From Solirubrobacteraceae bacterium (GTDB lineage Bacteria; Actinomycetota; Thermoleophilia; Solirubrobacterales; Solirubrobacteraceae): DNA of 64,000 nucleotides. Made by a program: the position numbers and the translations under genes. The notes under the pieces were generated by a model. It saw only the letters and a program-made list of their open reading frames with translations. It made no database searches and had not been told where the DNA came from. Where the stretch lies: positions 43,320 through 107,319 of the forward strand of contig JANWIP010000023.1 in NCBI GenBank assembly GCA_025449845.1, written 5' to 3'. This document shows, in pieces, positions 9,948 through 64,000 of this stretch (position 1 is its first letter; each line of letters begins with the position of its first letter).

Positions 9948-11696
9948 GTGAACTCCCCGACCGACACCCACCTGTTGCTGAACGTCTTCGTGGACGAGTT
10001 GGCTCGCTGCGGAATGCGCGCTGCCTGCACCTCCCCCGGCTCACGCAGCACCCCGTTGGTGCTGGCGCTCGCGCACGAGTCACGTCTTGAGTGCTACTCG
10101 CACATCGACGAGCGCTGCGCCGGCTTCTTCGCTTTGGGGCTTGCCAAGACCTCGGGTCTGCCGGTTGCGGTGGCGTGCACATCGGGCACAGCTGCCGCGG
10201 AGCTGCTACCGGCGGCGATCGAGGCACACGAGGCAGGCGTGCCGCTGCTGCTACTCACAGCAGATCGCCCCCCTGAGCTGCGTGAGTCGGGCGCCGGGCA
10301 GACGATCGACCAGATCAAGCTCTACGGTGACGCCGCGAAGTGGTTCTTTGAGGTCGGCAACCACGAGGCGACACCCGAGCGTCTGCGCTGGATGCGCACG
10401 CTTGCATGCCGTGCCTACTGGTGTGCGTTGGAGGGCCGCCCAGGTGCCGTCCACCTCAACTTCCCTCTACGCGAGCCGCTGGTGAGCGACGAGCCGCTGC
10501 CCGCCGAGCAGAGCGCCCGTGCACACGGCCAGCCATATGTGGGGCGTCCGCCCGCGCGGCTCGCCACGCCAGAAGGCATGGAGATGTTGAGCGAGTTCGT
10601 GACATCTGGCAAACGCGGGGTGCTGGTGGCCGGGCGCCACGAGCGTCTGACGCCGTTGGGCGAGGCAGCCGCCGCGTTCTGCACGGCAGCGGGCTGGCCG
10701 CTGCTGGCCGAGCCACTGTCGGGAGCGCGCAGAGGCGAAGCGGCGGTGGCGCACTACGACGCACTGTTGCGCGACGAGAGCTTCGCAGCCGACATGAGAC
10801 CCGACATGGTGCTGCGCGTGGGCGACCTGCCGACATCCAAGCCGCTGCGCGCCTGGCTGGCAGGCCTGGGCGAAGTGCCGCAGACGATCCTTGACCCCGA
10901 GGGCGGCTGGCGAGACCCAGATGCGGTGCTGTCATGCTCGCTGGCACTGGAGCCAGCCGCGGCGCTGTGGCAGCTCTCAGACTCCGCCCCGCCGGCCGAC
11001 CCCGACTGGCTGTCGAAGTGGCATAGCGCGGATGAGCTCGCCGCCGAGGCGATCCTCGGCGCGCTCGGAGTGGCCGGCCTATCCGAGCCGGTAGTCGCTG
11101 CCGAGCTGGGAGTACTGCTGCCCGCCGAGGCGACCCTGTTCGTCGCCTCCTCGATGCCGGTGCGTGACATAGAGAGCTTCTGGCCAGTGCGCGCCGACCC
11201 GCCGCGCGTGTTGTGCAATCGCGGCGCCAATGGCATCGATGGAACCGTCTCCAGCGCCTTCGGGGCGGCCGCAGCCAGCAACGGACCAGTGGTACTGCTT
11301 ATCGGCGACGTCGCCCTGGCATACGACATCGGCGGGCTGCTCGCGCACCGCCGTCTGGATTTGGATCTGACGATCGTGCTGCTCGATAACCAAGGCGGTG
11401 GGATCTTCGACTTCCTGCCCGTTGCACGCTCTCAAACAGCCCTCCGTGACGATGTCTACACCACCCATATCTCAACGCCCACCGGCCTTGACTTCGCCAA
11501 GGCAGCCGAGCTGTACGGCTTCGGCCATGAGCGTGTGGATGACCTCTTCGCCTTCCGCGCGGCGCTTGAGCGCTGTTTTGAAGATGGCCCGGATCGGGGC
11601 GCGAACATCGTTGAGGTGCGCACTGAGCGTGCAGCCAACGTCGAGTTGCATCGCCAACTGTGGGAGGCCGTTGCCGGCGCGCTCGGCTCAGCTTGA
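9948..11696 (+). CDS. menD: 2-succinyl-5-enolpyruvyl-6-hydroxy-3-cyclohexene-1-carboxylate synthase
   Basis: TDTHLLLNVFVDELARCGMRAACTSPGSRSTPLVLAL, LTADRPPELRESGAGQTIDQ, NRGANGIDGTVSSAFGAA; GTG start at 9948 inferred. Confidence 0.93.
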   Translation: MNSPTDTHLLLNVFVDELARCGMRAACTSPGSRSTPLVLALAHESRLECYSHIDERCAGFFALGLAKTSGLPVAVACTSGTAAAELLPAAIEAHEAGVPLLLLTADRPPELRESGAGQTIDQIKLYGDAAKWFFEVGNHEATPERLRWMRTLACRAYWCALEGRPGAVHLNFPLREPLVSDEPLPAEQSARAHGQPYVGRPPARLATPEGMEMLSEFVTSGKRGVLVAGRHERLTPLGEAAAAFCTAAGWPLLAEPLSGARRGEAAVAHYDALLRDESFAADMRPDMVLRVGDLPTSKPLRAWLAGLGEVPQTILDPEGGWRDPDAVLSCSLALEPAAALWQLSDSAPPADPDWLSKWHSADELAAEAILGALGVAGLSEPVVAAELGVLLPAEATLFVASSMPVRDIESFWPVRADPPRVLCNRGANGIDGTVSSAFGAAAASNGPVVLLIGDVALAYDIGGLLAHRRLDLDLTIVLLDNQGGGIFDFLPVARSQTALRDDVYTTHISTPTGLDFAKAAELYGFGHERVDDLFAFRAALERCFEDGPDRGANIVEVRTERAANVELHRQLWEAVAGALGSA

Positions 11697-56989: not shown

Positions 56990-57008
56990 GTGCTAATATG
57001 AATAGCAC
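56990..57008. promoter_or_regulatory. Palindromic operator-like site GTGCTA-N7-TAGCAC
   Basis: GTGCTAATATGAATAGCAC read directly; lies 1 nt upstream of the ATG of a 12-codon minus-strand ORF. Confidence 0.55.
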
Positions 57009-57101
57009 AATACAGAAGGGCATCGACCTTCCTCCCCGCGAAGCTGCTGCCTGTGCAACGCCTAGCGTTGGCCTGTAGTGAAGAGCCAGCGAAAGCCAGT
57101 C

Positions 57102-57395
57102 TCACGCGCTTGCGACGAGGCTGAAGTGCTCGACCGTCGGAAACGGGTCGTAGTAGCGGTGCAAGAGCCGACGCCACTCCTCATACGTCGCTGACCCCCG
57201 GAATCCCTCGGTGTGATCCTCGAGACGCTGCCATCCCACGAGGAGGTAACGGCTAGGCCGCTCAATACACCGATGCAACTGAAGCGACTCGAATCCGGGC
57301 ATCGAGGCGATAAGCGCCTTCGCCTCGCTGAAGTCGCTCTCGAAGGCGCTCTCCTGGCCCGGCCTTACGTCAAGTACCGCTTGCTCCGTGATCAC
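57102..57395 (-). CDS. Antibiotic biosynthesis monooxygenase (ABM)-domain protein
   Basis: VITEQAVLDVRPGQESAFESDFSEAKALIASMPGFESLQLHRCIERPSRYLLVGWQRLEDHTEGFRGS; GTG start at 57395. Confidence 0.8.
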   Translation of the reverse strand: MITEQAVLDVRPGQESAFESDFSEAKALIASMPGFESLQLHRCIERPSRYLLVGWQRLEDHTEGFRGSATYEEWRRLLHRYYDPFPTVEHFSLVASA

Positions 57396-57552
57396 ACCGC
57401 AATCGTCCCAGACGCTCAGCGAACCTGCCGCACCCCTCAACTCCTCTTGCCGGGCCCGTTGGTAGAAAAAGACCACGACCCGCCTATTCGTTCATTTTCG
57501 TCCGTCGTCCGGCGAACCAAGGCCAGCAGCACGAACGTTTCGGCGAGCCGCC

Positions 57553-57930
57553 CTACTCGCTATAGCAGGGGCAGCCGAAGCGCGCCCCCCGGCAACGGCC
57601 CCTATTCCAGCGTTCACGCCTGCTCGTCGCGTCAAGATGTGCGTAATGTCGGCGTTCAGGGTCTTGGGCGGACAGCACGAGAGAAACCGAGCGCATCCGA
57701 CGCGCTGCCTCATGCGCCCGCTTCGGCAGCAGGTGGGAATACACATCGACCGTAGTGGAGGTCTTTGCGTGCCCCGCGAAAGCGGCCACGAGCATGATGT
57801 CCTCACCCTGGCTGATCGCGTTCGTGATCGCTGTGTGCCGAAGGTCGTGCAGCCGGATCATGTCCGGGAGTCTGGCCCCGGTCCGCATAGCGGCGGAAGA
57901 CCCTCGTGACCATGCGCGGGCTCAGCGGAC
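57553..57930 (-). pseudogene. Tyrosine recombinase C-terminal remnant, frameshifted
   Basis: MIRLHDLRHTAITNAISQGEDIMLVAAFAGHAKTSTTVDVYSHLLPKRAHEAA; upstream VTRVFRRYA in another frame; no N-terminal domain. Confidence 0.85.
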
Positions 57931-58229
57931 GGCCGGTCGGTCGCATTACGCCCTCCCCGACCCCGCCTGGAACCCCACCCACAAATCCCTACACATCCCC
58001 AGCACCCTGCGCACACCCCAGCCGACACAGACACCCCACCGCGACACGCCCGACCGCGGGCGCTGATGCGTCCTGGCTGGGCTCGAAAATCAGCCTGGGG
58101 CTCGTTTTTGGGTGCTATTTCCCGTGTTGACTGGGCTTAGCTGCTCCCAGATTCGCTGAGATTTGCTCAAAACGGAACCACGAATGGAACCACGGCGAAT
58201 CCCCCGCCCTGCCCACTCGACAATCTCAT

Positions 58230-58520
58230 CACTCAGTTGCCGAGAGCCTTTCGAGCTCGACATCTGGGATCTCATCAAGGCGCATCATCCCCACGAGCCT
58301 CTTGCCGGTACCTGTCAAGCGAGGATGATCATCGCCTTGAGTCCTGTCCTCCAGCAGCAGCCCGCTGGACCAGGAAAACCGCACTAGCTCCTGTGATCGC
58401 CTCGTCGTAAGCGACGCTCGCGTAGAGGTGAGCGAGATAGGGCAGCTTGCGCTCCTCGTAGGTCGCGGCAGCCTCCCGCAGAAGACCCTCTAGGACCTCG
58501 TCAGTTTCAGAGCGTGGCTC
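58230..58520 (-). pseudogene. Decayed ORF of unknown function
   Basis: Minus-strand pieces SETDEVLEGLLREAAATYEERKLPYLAHLYASVAYDEAITGAS and RLVGMMRLDEIPDVELERLSATE* sit in different frames. Confidence 0.45.
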
Positions 58521-58532
58521 ATCACCCCCCTA

Positions 58533-58835
58533 TTGGACACCCCCGCCTTCTCCCCCCTGCGCGACCCCGCTATGTTCGAGCAGGTCGCGGTCGATGAGCA
58601 AACAGGCACGATCACGTGGCCGGGCGACGTTGACCTCGACCCTGACGTGATCTACGCGGCGCTGGACCTCGGACCGGACAAGGCGGCGGTCCTGGTCATC
58701 CGGCCCGGAAATACGGTGCAAACAAGCCGGTTTCCGTCCGATTCCTTCGCTAAGGTGTGCCATGGATGTGCCATCGGGCACCACACCAACGAAGCGCTCA
58801 TTCGCAATGAGCGTGCAGCCTTACAAGACCGCTGA
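58533..58835 (+). pseudogene. DUF2442-like fragment
   Basis: FSPLRDPAMFEQVAVDEQTGTITWPGDVDLDPDVIYAAL matches the C-terminal half of DUF2442 proteins; 5' portion missing. Confidence 0.6.
58756..58774 (+). repeat. Paired TGTGCCAT motifs, 11-bp period (integrase arm-like), copy A
   Basis: TGTGCCATGGATGTGCCAT just upstream of the integrase start. Confidence 0.7.
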
Positions 58836-60114
58836 TGGTCTTCAATGGCGCGTGCGCTGGCGCGACCCGAACGGAAAGATGCGCTCGCGCACGACGGCCA
58901 ACAAGCGCGAAGCCCTTGCGCTCGACGCCGATGTAAAGGCCCGCAGATTCCGAGGCGAGGTCATCCAACGCACGTCCCGCGACACCCTTGCCACGACGTA
59001 CGAGGAATGGAAGAGGCTCTACGCCGAGCAGCGTCTTTCCAAGAAGACGCGCACCAGATACGAAGAGGCATGGGAGCCCAACATCAAGGGGCGCCACGAT
59101 CACTACACGCTGGCCGAACTCGTCTCCGAACCGCAAATCTTCGAGGAGATGCTTGCCGAGATGGACGCCCGAGGGGTCGGCAACGAGACGCAACGCAAGG
59201 TCATGGTGGCGATGTCATCGGTGTTCAAGGCGGCGGTGCGTTGGCGCAAGGTCAGCGTCAATCCCGTGCTGGCGGTGCCCAAGCCACGAGCTGCGCACAA
59301 GCGCGTCCCGCGCCCCCTGCCGCCGATGGTCATTGAGCGAATCCGCTTGCAGATGCGCAGACGCAAGACCCGTGATCGGACCGGCGCTCGCGCCATCGCC
59401 GACGCCTGTCTGGTGACGCTCATGGCCTACGCCGGGCTTCGCCCCGGCGAGGCCCTAGCCCTGACGTGGGGCGACGTTGGAGCGAACATGCTCACGATCG
59501 ACAAGGCGGTGAGCATCGGCGAGGAAGAGGACACCAACGAGGAAGCGGACACCAAGACCGGCGGCGTGCGCTTTCCGCCCCTTGTGGAGCAGCTTGCCGC
59601 CGACCTTGCCGACCTACGAGCGGCCCGAGGGGACGTGACGGATGCGGACCTAGTGTTTCCCGCCCGCGACGGCGGGTATTGGTCACCGTCTCAATACAAC
59701 AACTGGCGCAGGCGTGTTTGGAAGAAGGCCATGAACAATCTCGCGGAGGGGAAGCCGCCACAGCCGCAGCTGGCGACGGCCCGCCCATACGACTGCCGAG
59801 GATCGTTCGTGAGCTTGCACCTGCGAGCGAGGGAGAACCCGATGGAAGTCGCCGAATGGGGCGGGCACTCGCAGCGAGTGATGTTCACGTACTACGCAGG
59901 CGTCATTAAGGAGCTACGCGGCGAGCCCGAGCTGTCAGCCGCCGAGCAGATCGCGCGAGCCCGTGACGCTGTGATCGAGGTGGAGCGGCGAGAGCTGGAC
60001 GAGATGATGGCCGACCTCATCGAGCACCCGACCATCATGTCCGGTGGCGGAGGCAGGGGCGGCGGTGGCGGGGGGAGACGAGCAGCCAGGAGGTTCTACG
60101 CGCCCAATATGTAG
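58807..60114 (+). CDS. Tyrosine recombinase / integrase
   Basis: N-terminal AP2-like WRVRWRDPNGKMRSRTTANKREA, catalytic AYAGLRPGEALALTWGDV, ARPYDCRGSFVSLHLRARENPMEVAEWGGHSQRVMFTYYAGV. Confidence 0.93.
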   Translation: MSVQPYKTADGLQWRVRWRDPNGKMRSRTTANKREALALDADVKARRFRGEVIQRTSRDTLATTYEEWKRLYAEQRLSKKTRTRYEEAWEPNIKGRHDHYTLAELVSEPQIFEEMLAEMDARGVGNETQRKVMVAMSSVFKAAVRWRKVSVNPVLAVPKPRAAHKRVPRPLPPMVIERIRLQMRRRKTRDRTGARAIADACLVTLMAYAGLRPGEALALTWGDVGANMLTIDKAVSIGEEEDTNEEADTKTGGVRFPPLVEQLAADLADLRAARGDVTDADLVFPARDGGYWSPSQYNNWRRRVWKKAMNNLAEGKPPQPQLATARPYDCRGSFVSLHLRARENPMEVAEWGGHSQRVMFTYYAGVIKELRGEPELSAAEQIARARDAVIEVERRELDEMMADLIEHPTIMSGGGGRGGGGGGRRAARRFYAPNM

Positions 60115-60257
60115 CGCCGCCGTTTGGCAAGCTCACGCCGACCCGTCGAGCGACCGGCGTCCAATCCCGTCGGTGGTGGGGGAGGCGATTGAGAAGGAGT
60201 TAGCGAAATCTGAGGACGGCGAAGCGGCTAGCCGATGGTTTAGCCGGAGCGGTCCGG

Positions 60258-60512
60258 CTAAAGTCTAAAGACGCGATCACGAGGCGCCTCCAGAAAGTCC
60301 CGTCCTGCGATAGGGTTCTCCAGACGGACGGTTATCGTTCCGGCCTCGTCGTCCGTGGCAGCCACTGTGCCTCTGCTCGTAAGGCCCTTCCCAATAACAA
60401 CATCGTCATCGATTTTGAGCCCCGACAAATCAACTTCGACAGGCTGCTCTTCGGTGTCCTGATCCGGCATCGCTTCAACACAGGCTAGCACCTCTCCTTC
60501 GATGCCTTCCAC
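60258..60512 (-). CDS. Hypothetical protein (84 aa)
   Basis: Plausible compact ORF MEGIEGEVLACVEAMPDQDTEEQPVEVDLSGLKIDDDVVIGKG. Confidence 0.4.
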   Translation of the reverse strand: MEGIEGEVLACVEAMPDQDTEEQPVEVDLSGLKIDDDVVIGKGLTSRGTVAATDDEAGTITVRLENPIAGRDFLEAPRDRVFRL

Positions 60513-60945
60513 GACACCACCCGCCGACGGGCAAACCGATCCCGGACGAAAGGTCGAGCTTCCACAGCCTGTCTTGCCTCCACAGCCTGCGCCGCATGAA
60601 GAGCGTGTCCCAATGTGGGTGTACGCGCCGCCAGGTACGACGCTGATTCCTGTGCCCGCAGCCCAAGAAGAAGCCGTGTACCGCCTGATTCAGAGCCAGT
60701 CTACGAATTGGTCGCGCCCTTCGAGCTACCAGCTTCCGGTTGACGTAAAGACGCCGCTCGCCATTCTCGTTCCGCTACTAGTCGGACTGGCTGGACAGAT
60801 CACAAGTAACGTGGTTCGCATCGCCATCATCGTCATTGCGTGCGCCGTTTTACTGTGGCTAGCACTTGCCACCTTGGGCGCTAGGCGCCTTCGGCATACA
60901 AACCGCGCGCTGGCCGAACCTAGCGAGCCGTTTACTCTCAGGTGA
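60502..60945 (+). CDS. Hypothetical membrane protein (147 aa)
   Basis: Two hydrophobic segments LAILVPLLVGLAGQITSNVV and IAIIVIACAVLLWLALATLGA. Confidence 0.55.
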   Translation: MPSTTPPADGQTDPGRKVELPQPVLPPQPAPHEERVPMWVYAPPGTTLIPVPAAQEEAVYRLIQSQSTNWSRPSSYQLPVDVKTPLAILVPLLVGLAGQITSNVVRIAIIVIACAVLLWLALATLGARRLRHTNRALAEPSEPFTLR

Positions 60946-61666
60946 GCGGGTACGTCAGTAAAGACGTCGCGCTGGTATTGATGCCCCGACCAACTGCCGT
61001 CTCCGAGCCCATCTACCAGCCCCCATCGTTCGAGCAGCCACCGGCCGCAGACCGCCTTACGGATGCGGCGAAGACGACGGCGAGAGCGCCGAGAGTGGTG
61101 GTGGGCCTTGGTTGCCATTTGGGTTTCCTCCAGGGGACGGATACGACGCCATCCCCAGGCCAGGAAGGAACCGATGCGGAGTGCCCCGAGCAACGCGAGT
61201 GCTATTGAGGGCCGCAGCTCCACGGGACCACTGGCACGATGGCGGATCGAAGCCAACCCCAGGAGGGACGCATGGCGACCGGCGCCGCCACGACGCTCCT
61301 CGTCGTCTTTGTCGCCTTCGGGGTGGTCGTGCCGACGACTGCTTGACCAGCTCGCCCACGTCGGCAATGGATCGCCCCTGCCTCCACCAGCCGGGCACCG
61401 GGGATCAGCACCCGCAGCTCTGCCGTGACGGTCGGTGCCGGGCGCCTTCGCTGCCCGGCACCGAGGGGTGAGTGCAGCCGGTGTGCGGCCCACAGCGGTC
61501 GGCACTCGGCCGGTCGTCACCGGCCCAGGCCGCCGCTGGCGAGAGCGACTGTCCGCAAGGTGCCTTGACCCGAACTCCGCTTCGCGTCGCCATAGCACGC
61601 ACTCCCTACAGCTCGCCGGACCTACCTAGTTTTTTCGTCTTTCTGGTGTTTTAGGGAAAGAACCGC

Positions 61667-61672
61667 TACAAT
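61667..61672 (+). promoter_or_regulatory. Probable -10 hexamer TACAAT for the TA-like pair
   Basis: TACAAT 6 bp before the ATG at 61679, implying a leaderless transcript. Confidence 0.5.
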
Positions 61673-61678
61673 CCCGGT

Positions 61679-62131
61679 ATGACCAAACGCGAGCAGCGAG
61701 CCCTCACGTTGGGCTTCATTACCCTCTCCGACACTCTGCATCGGACGGAAAACGCCCTCCAGCACGGAAGCATCCAGGACGCGCTGGACCAACTTCAGCA
61801 GACCCAGCACGTCGTGGCCGCCATGCACCCCGCCGAGATGGACGTGACGCAAGCTGCCGATGCGCTCGAAGTCTCCCCCCCGACCGTTCGAGCGTGGGCA
61901 AGGCGCGGACTGATGGAGGTCATCCGAGAGCGCCCGATGACGCTCGCCTTCCCGAGCGTCATCGGCCTGCGCGACCGCTTGCAGAGGCTACGCGAGACAG
62001 CCACCAACGAGAAGCGCTGGCAGTCGCTGCTCGCGGCCGCAGCAGACCAACGTGAGTTCGCGCAGGACGGCGCGCGCGAGGGCCTGGCCGACGCCCTCGC
62101 CGGGAACACCGAGCCACTGACGCAGCGGTGA
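61679..62131 (+). CDS. HTH (MerR/excisionase-like) protein, candidate antitoxin
   Basis: MDVTQAADALEVSPPTVRAWARRGLMEVIRERPMTLAFPSV helix-turn-helix; stop overlaps the next GTG. Confidence 0.75.
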   Translation: MTKREQRALTLGFITLSDTLHRTENALQHGSIQDALDQLQQTQHVVAAMHPAEMDVTQAADALEVSPPTVRAWARRGLMEVIRERPMTLAFPSVIGLRDRLQRLRETATNEKRWQSLLAAAADQREFAQDGAREGLADALAGNTEPLTQR

Positions 62132-62556
62132 CGTTCAACGTCTCCGTGGCCAGGCGAACGGCGCCGCGCGTGCGCGCACTTCGCGGAAGGGCACAGGAGC
62201 GATTTTGGGAGGCGGTGCGACAGTTGGAGGGCGAAGGCTGCAAGGCTGCCCACTACCGGATGCGTGCTCCCGATGGCGGGGACGCTCACATCTGCGGTCT
62301 GCGCTTCTACGCTGACTGGCGGATGCACTTGGTGTTCGGCGAGAACAACAACATCGTGGTCGCATGGGTCGGGCAGCACAGCGACAAAGAGAACGCCCAC
62401 ATCGACGGAGCCGAAGACATACCGCAGTTGGCGCACATCGGAAGGCGACGCGCGGATCAACCACCCTGCTGCGACGAGTTCGATGAGCCGCCGGCCGACC
62501 AAGACCTTGTCGATCTTGTCAACGCACTACGGCCAGCGCGAGCCCGGACACGATGA
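62128..62556 (+). CDS. RelE/ParE-like candidate toxin
   Basis: FWEAVRQLEGEGCKAAHYRMRAPDGGDAHICGLRFYADWRMHLVFGENNNIVVAWVGQHSDKENAHI; GTGA overlap with the HTH gene. Confidence 0.7.
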   Translation: MTFNVSVARRTAPRVRALRGRAQERFWEAVRQLEGEGCKAAHYRMRAPDGGDAHICGLRFYADWRMHLVFGENNNIVVAWVGQHSDKENAHIDGAEDIPQLAHIGRRRADQPPCCDEFDEPPADQDLVDLVNALRPARARTR

Positions 62557-62596
62557 CGTTGGTGTCGAGGACAGCCCCTCAGAGGTCCGTAGGAGG
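62540..62596 (-). pseudogene. PIN-domain N-terminal remnant
   Basis: Minus frame GAVLDTNVIVSGLALAVVR* preceded by an in-frame TGA. Confidence 0.45.
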
Positions 62597-62771
62597 CTCC
62601 CGGCGCAGCTCGCCGCAGCCAGCCGAGGGTACATGCCAAGCGCGCCGACATGGCACAGCAGGCGTCATCGCGCCACCAGCTCCGGCCCGCAGCACGCGCT
62701 ACGATGACCGCGCAATGCAGCGCGTTTCGAGCCCATGTGCCCTTGGTCGCCGGACTTCTTATCCCCGTATG

Positions 62772-62790
62772 TGTGCCATAGATGTGCCAT
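62772..62790 (+). repeat. Paired TGTGCCAT motifs, 11-bp period, copy B
   Basis: TGTGCCATAGATGTGCCAT; 18/19 identical to 58756-58774. Confidence 0.7.
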
Positions 62791-62846
62791 TCGGCGATGC
62801 GACGACGATGGGACGTAAGCTAGAAACCGCTTAGCAAAGCCACAAA

Positions 62847-62919
62847 GGGCGATTAGCTCAGTTGGGAGAGCGCCGCCTCGACAAGGCGGAGGTCACTGGT
62901 TCGAGCCCAGTATCGCCCA
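62847..62919 (+). tRNA. tRNA-Val(GAC), with C at position 33
   Basis: Cloverleaf: GGGCGAT TA GCTC AGTTGGGA GAGC G CCGCC TCGACAA GGCGG AGGTC ACTGG TTCGAGC CCAGT ATCGCCC A; no encoded CCA. Confidence 0.93.
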
Positions 62920-62932
62920 TTGGCGTACGGCC

Positions 62933-62954
62933 CCGCAAACACTGGGGTTTGCGG
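62933..62954 (+). terminator. Hairpin downstream of tRNA-Val (8-bp perfect stem)
   Basis: CCGCAAAC-ACTGGG-GTTTGCGG; no clear U tract. Confidence 0.5.
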
Positions 62955-62972
62955 CCTCCCGACGGTCCTTGA

Positions 62973-62989
62973 GGTTCCAATTTGGTTCC
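62973..62989 (+). repeat. Paired GGTTCC motifs, 11-bp period
   Basis: GGTTCCAATTTGGTTCC; related pair in opposite orientation at 58174-58192 (GGAACCACGAATGGAACCA). Confidence 0.6.
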
Positions 62990-63059
62990 GTTGCCTGCGC
63001 GAGCGCGTTGCGCAGGGAGCGAGTCAGCCGCGATGCTGCGGTCCAGGACATAGACCTGA

Positions 63060-63100
63060 GCCTTGTCGAGGCGGCGCTCTCCCAGCTGAGCTAATCGCCC
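63060..63100 (-). repeat. Inverted 41-nt copy of the 5' half of tRNA-Val
   Basis: Minus strand GGGCGATTAGCTCAGCTGGGAGAGCGCCGCCTCGACAAGGC; 40/41 identical to 62847-62887, then diverges so the anticodon stem cannot close. Confidence 0.9.
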
Positions 63101-63216
63101 TGGGACGGCCCTAGCGTATCAACGGCGACCGTCCGAGATCGCGTGAGGACCCAAGGCACCATCCTCAATACCCCCCAGAGCCCGCGCCCCCGGGCACCGG
63201 GCTGGAGTGACCCCCA

Positions 63217-63885
63217 TCAAGGCACAATCACAACTTGGCCTTCCCCACCCATGCCGGTCGGTCCCCCACCGGTTGAGCCCGAGCTGCCGGCAACCCCGTT
63301 GGCGCCTTCCGATTCCGCTCCGGAGCTCGATTCACGGCCAAAGGGCCCGGCTTCGCGACCTTCGCCGCCGCTGCCGCTAGCACCCCCGTAGGGACCTTCC
63401 GTTTCGGCGGGAGATTCCGTGCCGTAAGGCGAGGATTCGCTGCCGGAGGACCCCGGTGTCCCTGATGCCTGTCCGCCCTGACCCTGGGTGGAGGTCCCCT
63501 CACCAGACTCAATCGCCTTGACAACTTCGGTGACGGTGTTCGAGGAGATCGCGAAGCCCACCCCGGTGCTTCCTGGCTGCGATTCGGCGCTGCTCGCCGC
63601 GTCGCTTGCGATCTGCGAGTTGACCCCGATCACCTCGCCCTGATCGTTGAGCAGCGGGCCACCGGAGTTGCCTGGGTTCAAGGCAGCATCTGTCTGGATC
63701 GCGTCCTTGATGCTCGCTCCGTCGGGAGCCGATATTTCGCGCCCCAGGGCCGACACTATGCCCTTCGTCAAGGTCTCATCGAGGCCGTAAGGGTTGCCGA
63801 TCGCATAGACCGAGTCGCCGACCTGCACAGAGCTTGAGCTGACCATTTTCAAGGGCCGCAGTCCAAGGCCCGATGAGGGGGTCCC
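63217..63885 (-). pseudogene. HtrA-type serine protease, 5' truncated, with low-complexity C-terminal tail
   Basis: [64 protein letters not shown]; upstream replaced by IS DNA. Confidence 0.85.
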
Positions 63886-64000
63886 TGTGAAGTGATCCGG
63901 GCGTTGTGCGTGTTCGTCACGTCCCTGTGGTGGGATGAGAGGATGGACACGATCATGAAGCGACGGAGGCATACGCCGGAGCAGGCAGTTCGCAAGATCC
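63886..64000 (+). mobile_element. Left end of IS3-family element with OrfA start (runs off window)
   Basis: ATG at 63943/63955: [19 protein letters not shown], typical IS3-family OrfA N-terminus; boundary approximate (63880-63890). Confidence 0.8.

What the first reader, a model, noticed from the sequence alone, without database searches (positions are those of the whole stretch)
57000..63105. tRNA-Val-linked integration island with two recombinases and two classes of phased short repeats
Seen in sequence: a decayed tyrosine recombinase (57553-57930, minus), an intact one (58807-60114, plus), a tRNA-Val gene and two unrelated paired motifs. TGTGCCAT pairs occur at 58756 and 62772 (11-bp period, same orientation). 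GGTTCC pairs occur at 62973 (11-bp period) and, in inverse orientation, at 58174 (12-bp period). Helically phased pairs of short direct repeats are typical of arm-type binding sites of lambda-type integrases. Inference: each repeat class belongs to one of two recombinases that successively used the same tRNA-Val, leaving a composite or nested element.
Basis: partly seen in the sequence, partly recalled or inferred. Interest (0 to 1): 0.72.

Follow-up and report, generated by a model that had tools for sequence, protein, structure and literature searches.

The report
tRNA-hijacking element flipped at its site
A small mobile element in a soil actinobacterium replaced the front half and promoter of the only tRNA-Val(GAC) gene found in the genome, and a later DNA flip at the same 8-bp site left that tRNA assembled from element and host halves, so that losing the element should now destroy the tRNA.

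Summary
All reported motifs are real and non-random. The locus is a composite of two element classes. Element A (GGTTCC arm pairs) is an ordinary 3'-type tRNA-Val element; relative G018 holds an intact counterpart. Element B (TGTGCCAT pairs, integrase 58807-60114) integrated in the anticodon loop and replaced the 5' half and promoter of tRNA-Val. Evidence: the native 5' half with native promoter survives, inverted, at 63060-63100 beside the DegP-like gene. It carries C16, as in 15 of 15 arm-less relatives. The intact tRNA has T16 and the arm pair 56 nt upstream, as in G014. Across 232 order genomes the arm pair lies 52-56 nt upstream of tRNA-Val, Ile, Thr or Arg. G188 shows an uninverted case: a 40-nt displaced 5' half with arms, 1.3 kb before an intact armed tRNA. 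In the window a reciprocal inversion at (G/A)ACAAGGC then exchanged the tRNA core with a DUF2442 gene, whose body is at 58520-58684 and tail at 63024-63059. Int B is the likely catalyst. Excision should now break the tRNA. 5'-half capture and integrase-made inversions are known but rare; the combination is a new variant. Activity is untested.

The parts
57553..57982 (-). decayed tyrosine recombinase fragment (C-terminal catalytic part; upstream piece in another frame), owner unknown
   Evidence: Pfam Phage_integrase 4.6e-7 for 57553-57888; PHROG integrase 7e-13; upstream frame-shifted piece is read from sequence only
58077..58195 (-). attR of element A: GGTTCC pair (58174-58191) plus T-arm core TTCGAGCCCAG (58077-58087)
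   Evidence: 89% over 120 bp to G018 attR, where it runs into the tRNA-Val 3' end
58520..58684 (+). body of a DUF2442 gene (N-terminus missing), cut at the core by the inversion
   Evidence: 85% DNA identity to G018 DUF2442; four relatives keep body and tail contiguous
58677..58684 (.). inversion junction J2: GACAAGGC, DUF2442 body joined to the P' side of element B
58756..58774 (+). P' arm pair TGTGCCATGGATGTGCCAT of element B
   Evidence: only exact pairs in the genome are this and 62772
58807..60114 (+). intact tyrosine integrase Int B (ORF open from 58762)
61679..62131 (+). MerR-like HTH protein: cargo, antitoxin or directionality factor (inferred)
   Evidence: weak HTH hits, below Pfam cut-offs
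62128..62556 (+). partner ORF overlapping the HTH gene, possibly a toxin (inferred)
   Evidence: no family hit at useful E-value
62772..62790 (+). P arm pair TGTGCCATAGATGTGCCAT, 56 nt upstream of the tRNA
62847..62887 (+). tRNA-Val 5' half (T16) supplied by element B, with core GACAAGGC 62880-62887
   Evidence: T16 only in G000 and G014, both with arms
62888..62919 (+). tRNA-Val 3' half (chromosomal or element A origin)
62973..62989 (+). arm A GGTTCCAATTTGGTTCC, 53 nt after the tRNA
   Evidence: same position and class in G018, GGATCCAATATGGTTCC
63024..63059 (-). 3' tail of the DUF2442 gene, separated from its body by the inversion
   Evidence: 36/45 identical to G007 tail; best 40-nt match in the window 33/40 versus 23/40 next
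63060..63067 (.). inversion junction J1: GACAAGGC, native tRNA 5' half joined to the DUF2442 tail
63060..63100 (-). displaced native tRNA-Val 5' half (positions 1-41, C16)
63101..63125 (-). native tRNA-Val promoter region still next to the DegP-like gene
   Evidence: matches G018 10352-10378 and the pattern of 15 arm-less relatives

Best explanation
Two classes of tRNA-targeting element used the same tRNA-Val(GAC). Element A integrated at the T-arm (3' type), leaving GGTTCC arm pairs at both ends and carrying a DUF2442 cargo gene; its integrase is gone. Element B integrates in the anticodon loop by its own tyrosine integrase, with attP = TGTGCCAT pair - 89 nt (including tRNA 5' half) - GACAAGGC - 71 nt - TGTGCCAT pair - int. 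It therefore replaces the 5' half and promoter of the tRNA. A reciprocal exchange then occurred between the tRNA core GACAAGGC and a look-alike (G/A)ACAAGGC in the DUF2442 gene, inverting the DNA between them. Two orders give the same product: integration in the tRNA followed by a 4.4-kb inversion, or integration in DUF2442 followed by a 172-bp inversion. Shown from sequence: 5'-half replacement, both junctions, and the need for an inversion. Inferred: Int B as catalyst, arm function of the repeats, and that excision would now separate the tRNA halves and destroy the only tRNA-Val(GAC) found.
For: Native 5' half with native promoter and C16 at 63100 (minus) beside the DegP-like gene, as upstream of intact tRNA-Val in 15 relatives; T16 plus arms only in G000 and G014. 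Arm pair 52-56 nt upstream of tRNA-Val, Ile, Thr and Arg genes in six genomes, and before a truncated tRNA-Arg 5' half in G188; one non-tRNA hit in 232 genomes. G188: exact tRNA-Arg 1-40 copy with arms 1.3 kb before the intact armed tRNA-Arg, same orientation. DUF2442 body at 58520-58684 and tail at 63024-63059, contiguous in four relatives. Un-inverting puts both GGTTCC pairs in the same orientation, as in G018. One tRNA-Val(GAC) in the genome.
Against: No binding, integration or excision data. The P' end with int is seen in this locus only; the other armed tRNAs have no nearby intact Int B homologue in the sequence examined. The 8-bp core is short, and attR x attB-like exchange is not the standard integrase reaction. 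The GC-rich match of the P' side to the tRNA beyond GACAAGGC (12.5 on my scale) is hardly above background (12).
Confidence: 0.82

Rival explanations
1. Element B integrated as described, but the inversion was made by homologous or microhomology-mediated repair, not by Int B.
For: Only 7-8 bp are shared between the DUF2442 site and the tRNA, within reach of microhomology repair; a 49-bp inverted repeat now exists.
Against: One breakpoint lies exactly in the anticodon-loop core used by B, at the same tRNA position as in the G188 case. 8 bp is too short for RecA (general knowledge). The exchange is reciprocal, with no loss detectable at either junction.
Confidence: 0.17
2. The TGTGCCAT pairs are a tRNA promoter or regulator-binding motif, not integrase arm sites.
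For: Constant 52-56 nt spacing to tRNA 5' ends.
Against: Absent from nearly all tRNAs of the same genomes; one pair lies at the integrase start, not at a tRNA; the same tRNA genes in relatives lack it and have another promoter. It accompanies inserted cargo: hipBA, AbiE-like, Fic (names by sequence reading).
Confidence: 0.06
3. The inverted tRNA fragment and split DUF2442 gene are an assembly artefact.
For: The genome is a 36-contig assembly and inverted repeats can mislead assemblers.
Against: DUF2442 and tRNA share only 7-8 bp at each junction, too short for a k-mer assembler to join falsely; both reciprocal junctions are present.
Confidence: 0.04
4. Simple nesting: two elements, each with its recombinase, no inversion.
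For: Two recombinase genes and two repeat classes.
Against: Does not explain the inverted native 5' half, the split DUF2442 gene, or opposite GGTTCC orientation versus G018.
Confidence: 0.02

Closest known systems
5'-half tRNA integrators: Zhao and Williams 2002 element (title and citation only, via PMC6563490), archaeal pTN3-like integrases, the 159 of 3919 Islander islands with a 5' fragment (PMC4383910)
   Same: Displaced fragment is the tRNA 5' end; rebuilt tRNA is expressed from element DNA (PMC8371274 for pTN3)
   Different: Bacterial Solirubrobacterales element with paired TGTGCCAT arms; one signature at four tRNA isotypes; here followed by an inversion
IntpTN3 chromosomal inversions at tRNA genes in Thermococcus (PMC5495485)
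   Same: 5'-half tRNA integrase linked to inversions with tRNA breakpoints
   Different: There large inversions between long similar segments (about 100 bp or more); here 172 bp or 4.4 kb at 8 bp shared with a cargo gene
tRNA-dependent lysogeny, Fionnbharth and relatives (PMC10865867)
   Same: Host comes to rely on an element-supplied tRNA; about 10-bp core; secondary sites in protein genes
   Different: The phage disrupts the tRNA and brings a separate tRNA gene; here half of the same gene is swapped
3'-type tRNA elements of the same lineage (G018 at tRNA-Val; Int B homologues at tRNA-Thr, Arg, Ala)
   Same: Related tyrosine integrases, about 29-41% identity, often beside a tRNA
   Different: In the convergent cases the int 3' end faces the tRNA 3' end; B has reversed polarity

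Membership tests
5'-type tRNA integrative element | tyrosine integrase in the element | tested here: met
5'-type tRNA integrative element | displaced fragment is the tRNA 5' end, ending in the anticodon arm | tested here: met
   63060-63100; uninverted case in G188
5'-type tRNA integrative element | intact tRNA carries element-derived 5' half and promoter | tested here: met
   T16 plus foreign upstream versus C16 plus native promoter in 15 relatives
5'-type tRNA integrative element | fragment in same orientation as the tRNA (Islander filter, not a mechanistic requirement) | tested here: inconclusive
   opposite orientation in the window, explained by the later inversion; same orientation in G188
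5'-type tRNA integrative element | active integration and excision | not testable with these tools
   needs experiment
lambda-type integrase with arm sites | short repeats on both sides of the core | tested here: met
   58756 and 62772
lambda-type integrase with arm sites | arm-type DNA-binding N-terminal domain | tested here: inconclusive
   Pfam reported only the catalytic domain
lambda-type integrase with arm sites | integrase binds the repeats | not testable with these tools
   needs gel shift or footprint
integrative conjugative element | transfer or replication genes | tested here: not met
   none among the ORFs searched between 58756 and 62790
phase-variable DNA inversion switch | inverted repeats around a short segment with a recombinase nearby | tested here: met
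   49-nt repeat, 94%, 158 nt between; int 2.7 kb away
phase-variable DNA inversion switch | both orientations observed | not testable with these tools
   no reads available

The most novel reading that the evidence does not exclude
The 172-bp segment between the two GACAAGGC cores (62888-63059) is a reversible promoter switch for the tRNA: in one orientation the 3' half joins the element's 5' half and promoter, in the other it joins the native 5' half and promoter, flipped by Int B. The tRNA stays intact in both states, but its control passes between host and element.
Probability: 0.08. Interest if true: 0.78.

Novelty: new variant of a known kind. Interest (0 to 1): 0.5.

Why it matters
It resolves, base by base, how a rare 5'-type element takes over a tRNA gene's promoter and 5' half, and how one further exchange can make that takeover hard to reverse, because clean excision would now split the only tRNA-Val(GAC) found. 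It gives a searchable signature (TGYKCYATRGAWGYKCCAT 52-56 nt upstream of a tRNA) for a group of 5'-type elements in Solirubrobacterales. Island finders such as Islander discard tRNA fragments in opposite orientation as false positives (PMC4383910); this locus shows that such a fragment can be genuine.

Tried and rejected
Reading 58677-58720 as simply the DUF2442 3' end was considered, because DKAAVLVIRP resembles the G018 tail. It was rejected after four orthologues showed the true tail (LGPNKA.IKVLAPS.AA), which is at 63024-63059. Assigning the decayed recombinase to the GGTTCC sites: not supported. Close Int B relatives in genome contigs, viral contigs and plasmids: none; phages only 22-25% identity; no PDB sequence match. 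Pattern hits in viral contigs and Pseudalkalibacillus have no tRNA and are chance-like. Displaced 5' halves in G002, G003, G014 and the own tRNA-Ile locus were sought and not found above threshold, so those may be old, truncated or beyond the contig. The 81-bp piece shared with the own tRNA-Ile locus was not explained.
Full report
Observation. The TGTGCCAT pairs (58756, 62772) are the only exact ones in the genome and expected 0.00 times in the window. The GGTTCC pairs (58174 minus, 62973 plus) are expected 0.01 times. The intact recombinase, the decayed one and tRNA-Val(GAC) are confirmed.

Element A. In relative G018 (L049) a DegP-like gene is followed by tRNA-Val, then GGATCCAATATGGTTCC 52-53 nt after the tRNA, an integrase, and 4 kb on GGTTCCATTCGTGGTTCC, followed by a tRNA-Val 3' fragment TTCGAGCCCAGTATCGCCCA. 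This is a standard 3'-type element with its crossover in the T arm. The window carries both ends: 62973 next to the tRNA and 58077-58195 (89% to G018 over 120 bp). In G018 both arm pairs point the same way; in the window they are opposed. In several relatives (G002, G006, G018, G022) the GGTTCC pair is followed by a tRNA-like 3' fragment, by eye in some. The decayed recombinase lies outside this element and its relation to G018's integrase is weak.

Element B replaces the 5' half. Fifteen relatives without arms share a native tRNA-Val form with C16, and most show the upstream motif TTGATANNCTTGG..TCCCA or a close form of it. In the window that motif and C16 sit on the inverted fragment at 63060-63125, beside the DegP-like gene as in G018. 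The intact tRNA instead has T16 and foreign upstream DNA with the TGTGCCAT pair; G014 is the only other genome with T16, and it too has the pair. So the original 5' half was displaced and the present one came with element B. The right end of B is therefore P arm, tRNA 5' half, core; the left end is core, P' arm (58756), int.

Signature in other genomes. The degenerate pair TGYKCYATRGAWGYKCCAT was searched in 146 family and then 232 order genomes, up to one mismatch. Outside the int-proximal copy it occurs upstream of tRNA-Val (G000, G014), tRNA-Ile (G000, G002), tRNA-Thr (G003) and tRNA-Arg (G188, G212), with 52-56 nt between arm and tRNA; one further hit (G086) has no tRNA. G188 has two pairs 1.3 kb apart in the same orientation: the second before an intact tRNA-Arg, the first before an exact copy of tRNA-Arg 1-40 that stops in the anticodon arm. 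This is an uninverted 5'-type insertion. Scanning 84,980 species genomes with the pair plus TAGCTCAG gave four Solirubrobacterales or actinobacterial MAG contigs and one chance-like hit without a tRNA.

Inversion. The DUF2442 gene in G018, G003, G006 and G007 runs through LGPNKA.IKVLAPS.AA stop. In the window the body ends at GACAAGGC (58684) and continues into element B, while the matching tail (36/45 identical to G007; 33/40 against 23/40 for the next best place in the window) follows the native tRNA 5' half at 63024-63059. The reciprocal exchange took place within (G/A)ACAAGGC. Undoing it restores DUF2442, gives a normal B left end after the native 5' half, and sets both GGTTCC pairs in the same orientation as in G018. 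Two event orders lead to the same product: integration at the tRNA then a 4.4-kb inversion, or integration at DUF2442 then a 172-bp inversion. I cannot tell them apart.

Mechanism. Int B keeps the catalytic positions of its homologues, including R, K, R, H and Y; the first H of the HxxR box is Y, as in most of them. A tyrosine integrase acting in the 7-nt anticodon loop is typical (PMC8371274). Expression of a rebuilt tRNA from element DNA is known for pTN3-like integrases and called seldom in bacteria (PMC8371274), and pTN3 integrase makes inversions at tRNA genes (PMC5495485). Int B as inverting enzyme is inference, from the fit of the breakpoint to its core.

Consequence (inference). B is now flanked by DUF2442 and tRNA cores in direct orientation. 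Excision would carry away the 5' half and join the tRNA 3' half to DUF2442, while the native 5' half stays inverted against the DUF2442 tail. Only one tRNA-Val(GAC) was found (completeness 92.6%), so excision is probably lethal and the element is locked in. Alternatively, flipping the 172-bp segment would rebuild the tRNA with its native promoter; whether this happens is unknown.

Cargo. B holds an HTH gene overlapping a small ORF of unknown family, 61679-62556. The inserts before other armed tRNAs look like hipBA (G002), AbiE-like genes (G003) and Fic genes (G014), by sequence reading only.

Verdict. A rare but known kind (5'-type tRNA element) with an added, base-resolved inversion that makes the host tRNA a host-element hybrid.

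Noticed in passing
window 63870-64000: The contig end looks like the start of an IS3-type transposase gene ([15 protein letters not shown]) interrupting the N-terminus of the DegP-like gene; a 94% copy of the junction peptide lies in contig C25 of the same genome.
   Followed up: partly
L048 4739-5763 (own genome C20): tRNA-Ile has the TGTGCCAT-type pair upstream, an Int B-like C-terminal fragment (57% identity) downstream and a displaced tRNA-Ile 3' fragment 0.8 kb on: 5'-type and 3'-type insertions seem to share one tRNA.
   Followed up: partly
window 61534-61614 and L048 6023-6102: An 81-bp piece, 90% identical, is shared by element B and the region upstream of the armed tRNA-Ile in the same genome, and by no other genome of the genus.
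   Followed up: no
L088, L089 (G003, G002): tRNA-Val is followed at 52 nt by GGTAGCAATTTGGTAGCAAT, a third class of 11-bp-period pair at the same place as arm A.
   Followed up: no
L094, L100, L101 (G021, G018, G014): Stray tRNA-Val 3' halves starting at TCGACAAGG or nearby point to 3'-type elements that also cross over in the anticodon loop.
   Followed up: no
L109 7107-8373 (G188): The 1.27-kb insert between the displaced and intact tRNA-Arg holds a cupin-like gene and no integrase match; it may be moved in trans (part of the stretch is masked).
   Followed up: partly
window 58077: The attR of element A stops at TTCGAGCCCAG instead of running on to the tRNA 3' end as in G018 and G022, so the DNA to its left (with the decayed recombinase) is not the native flank.
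   Followed up: no
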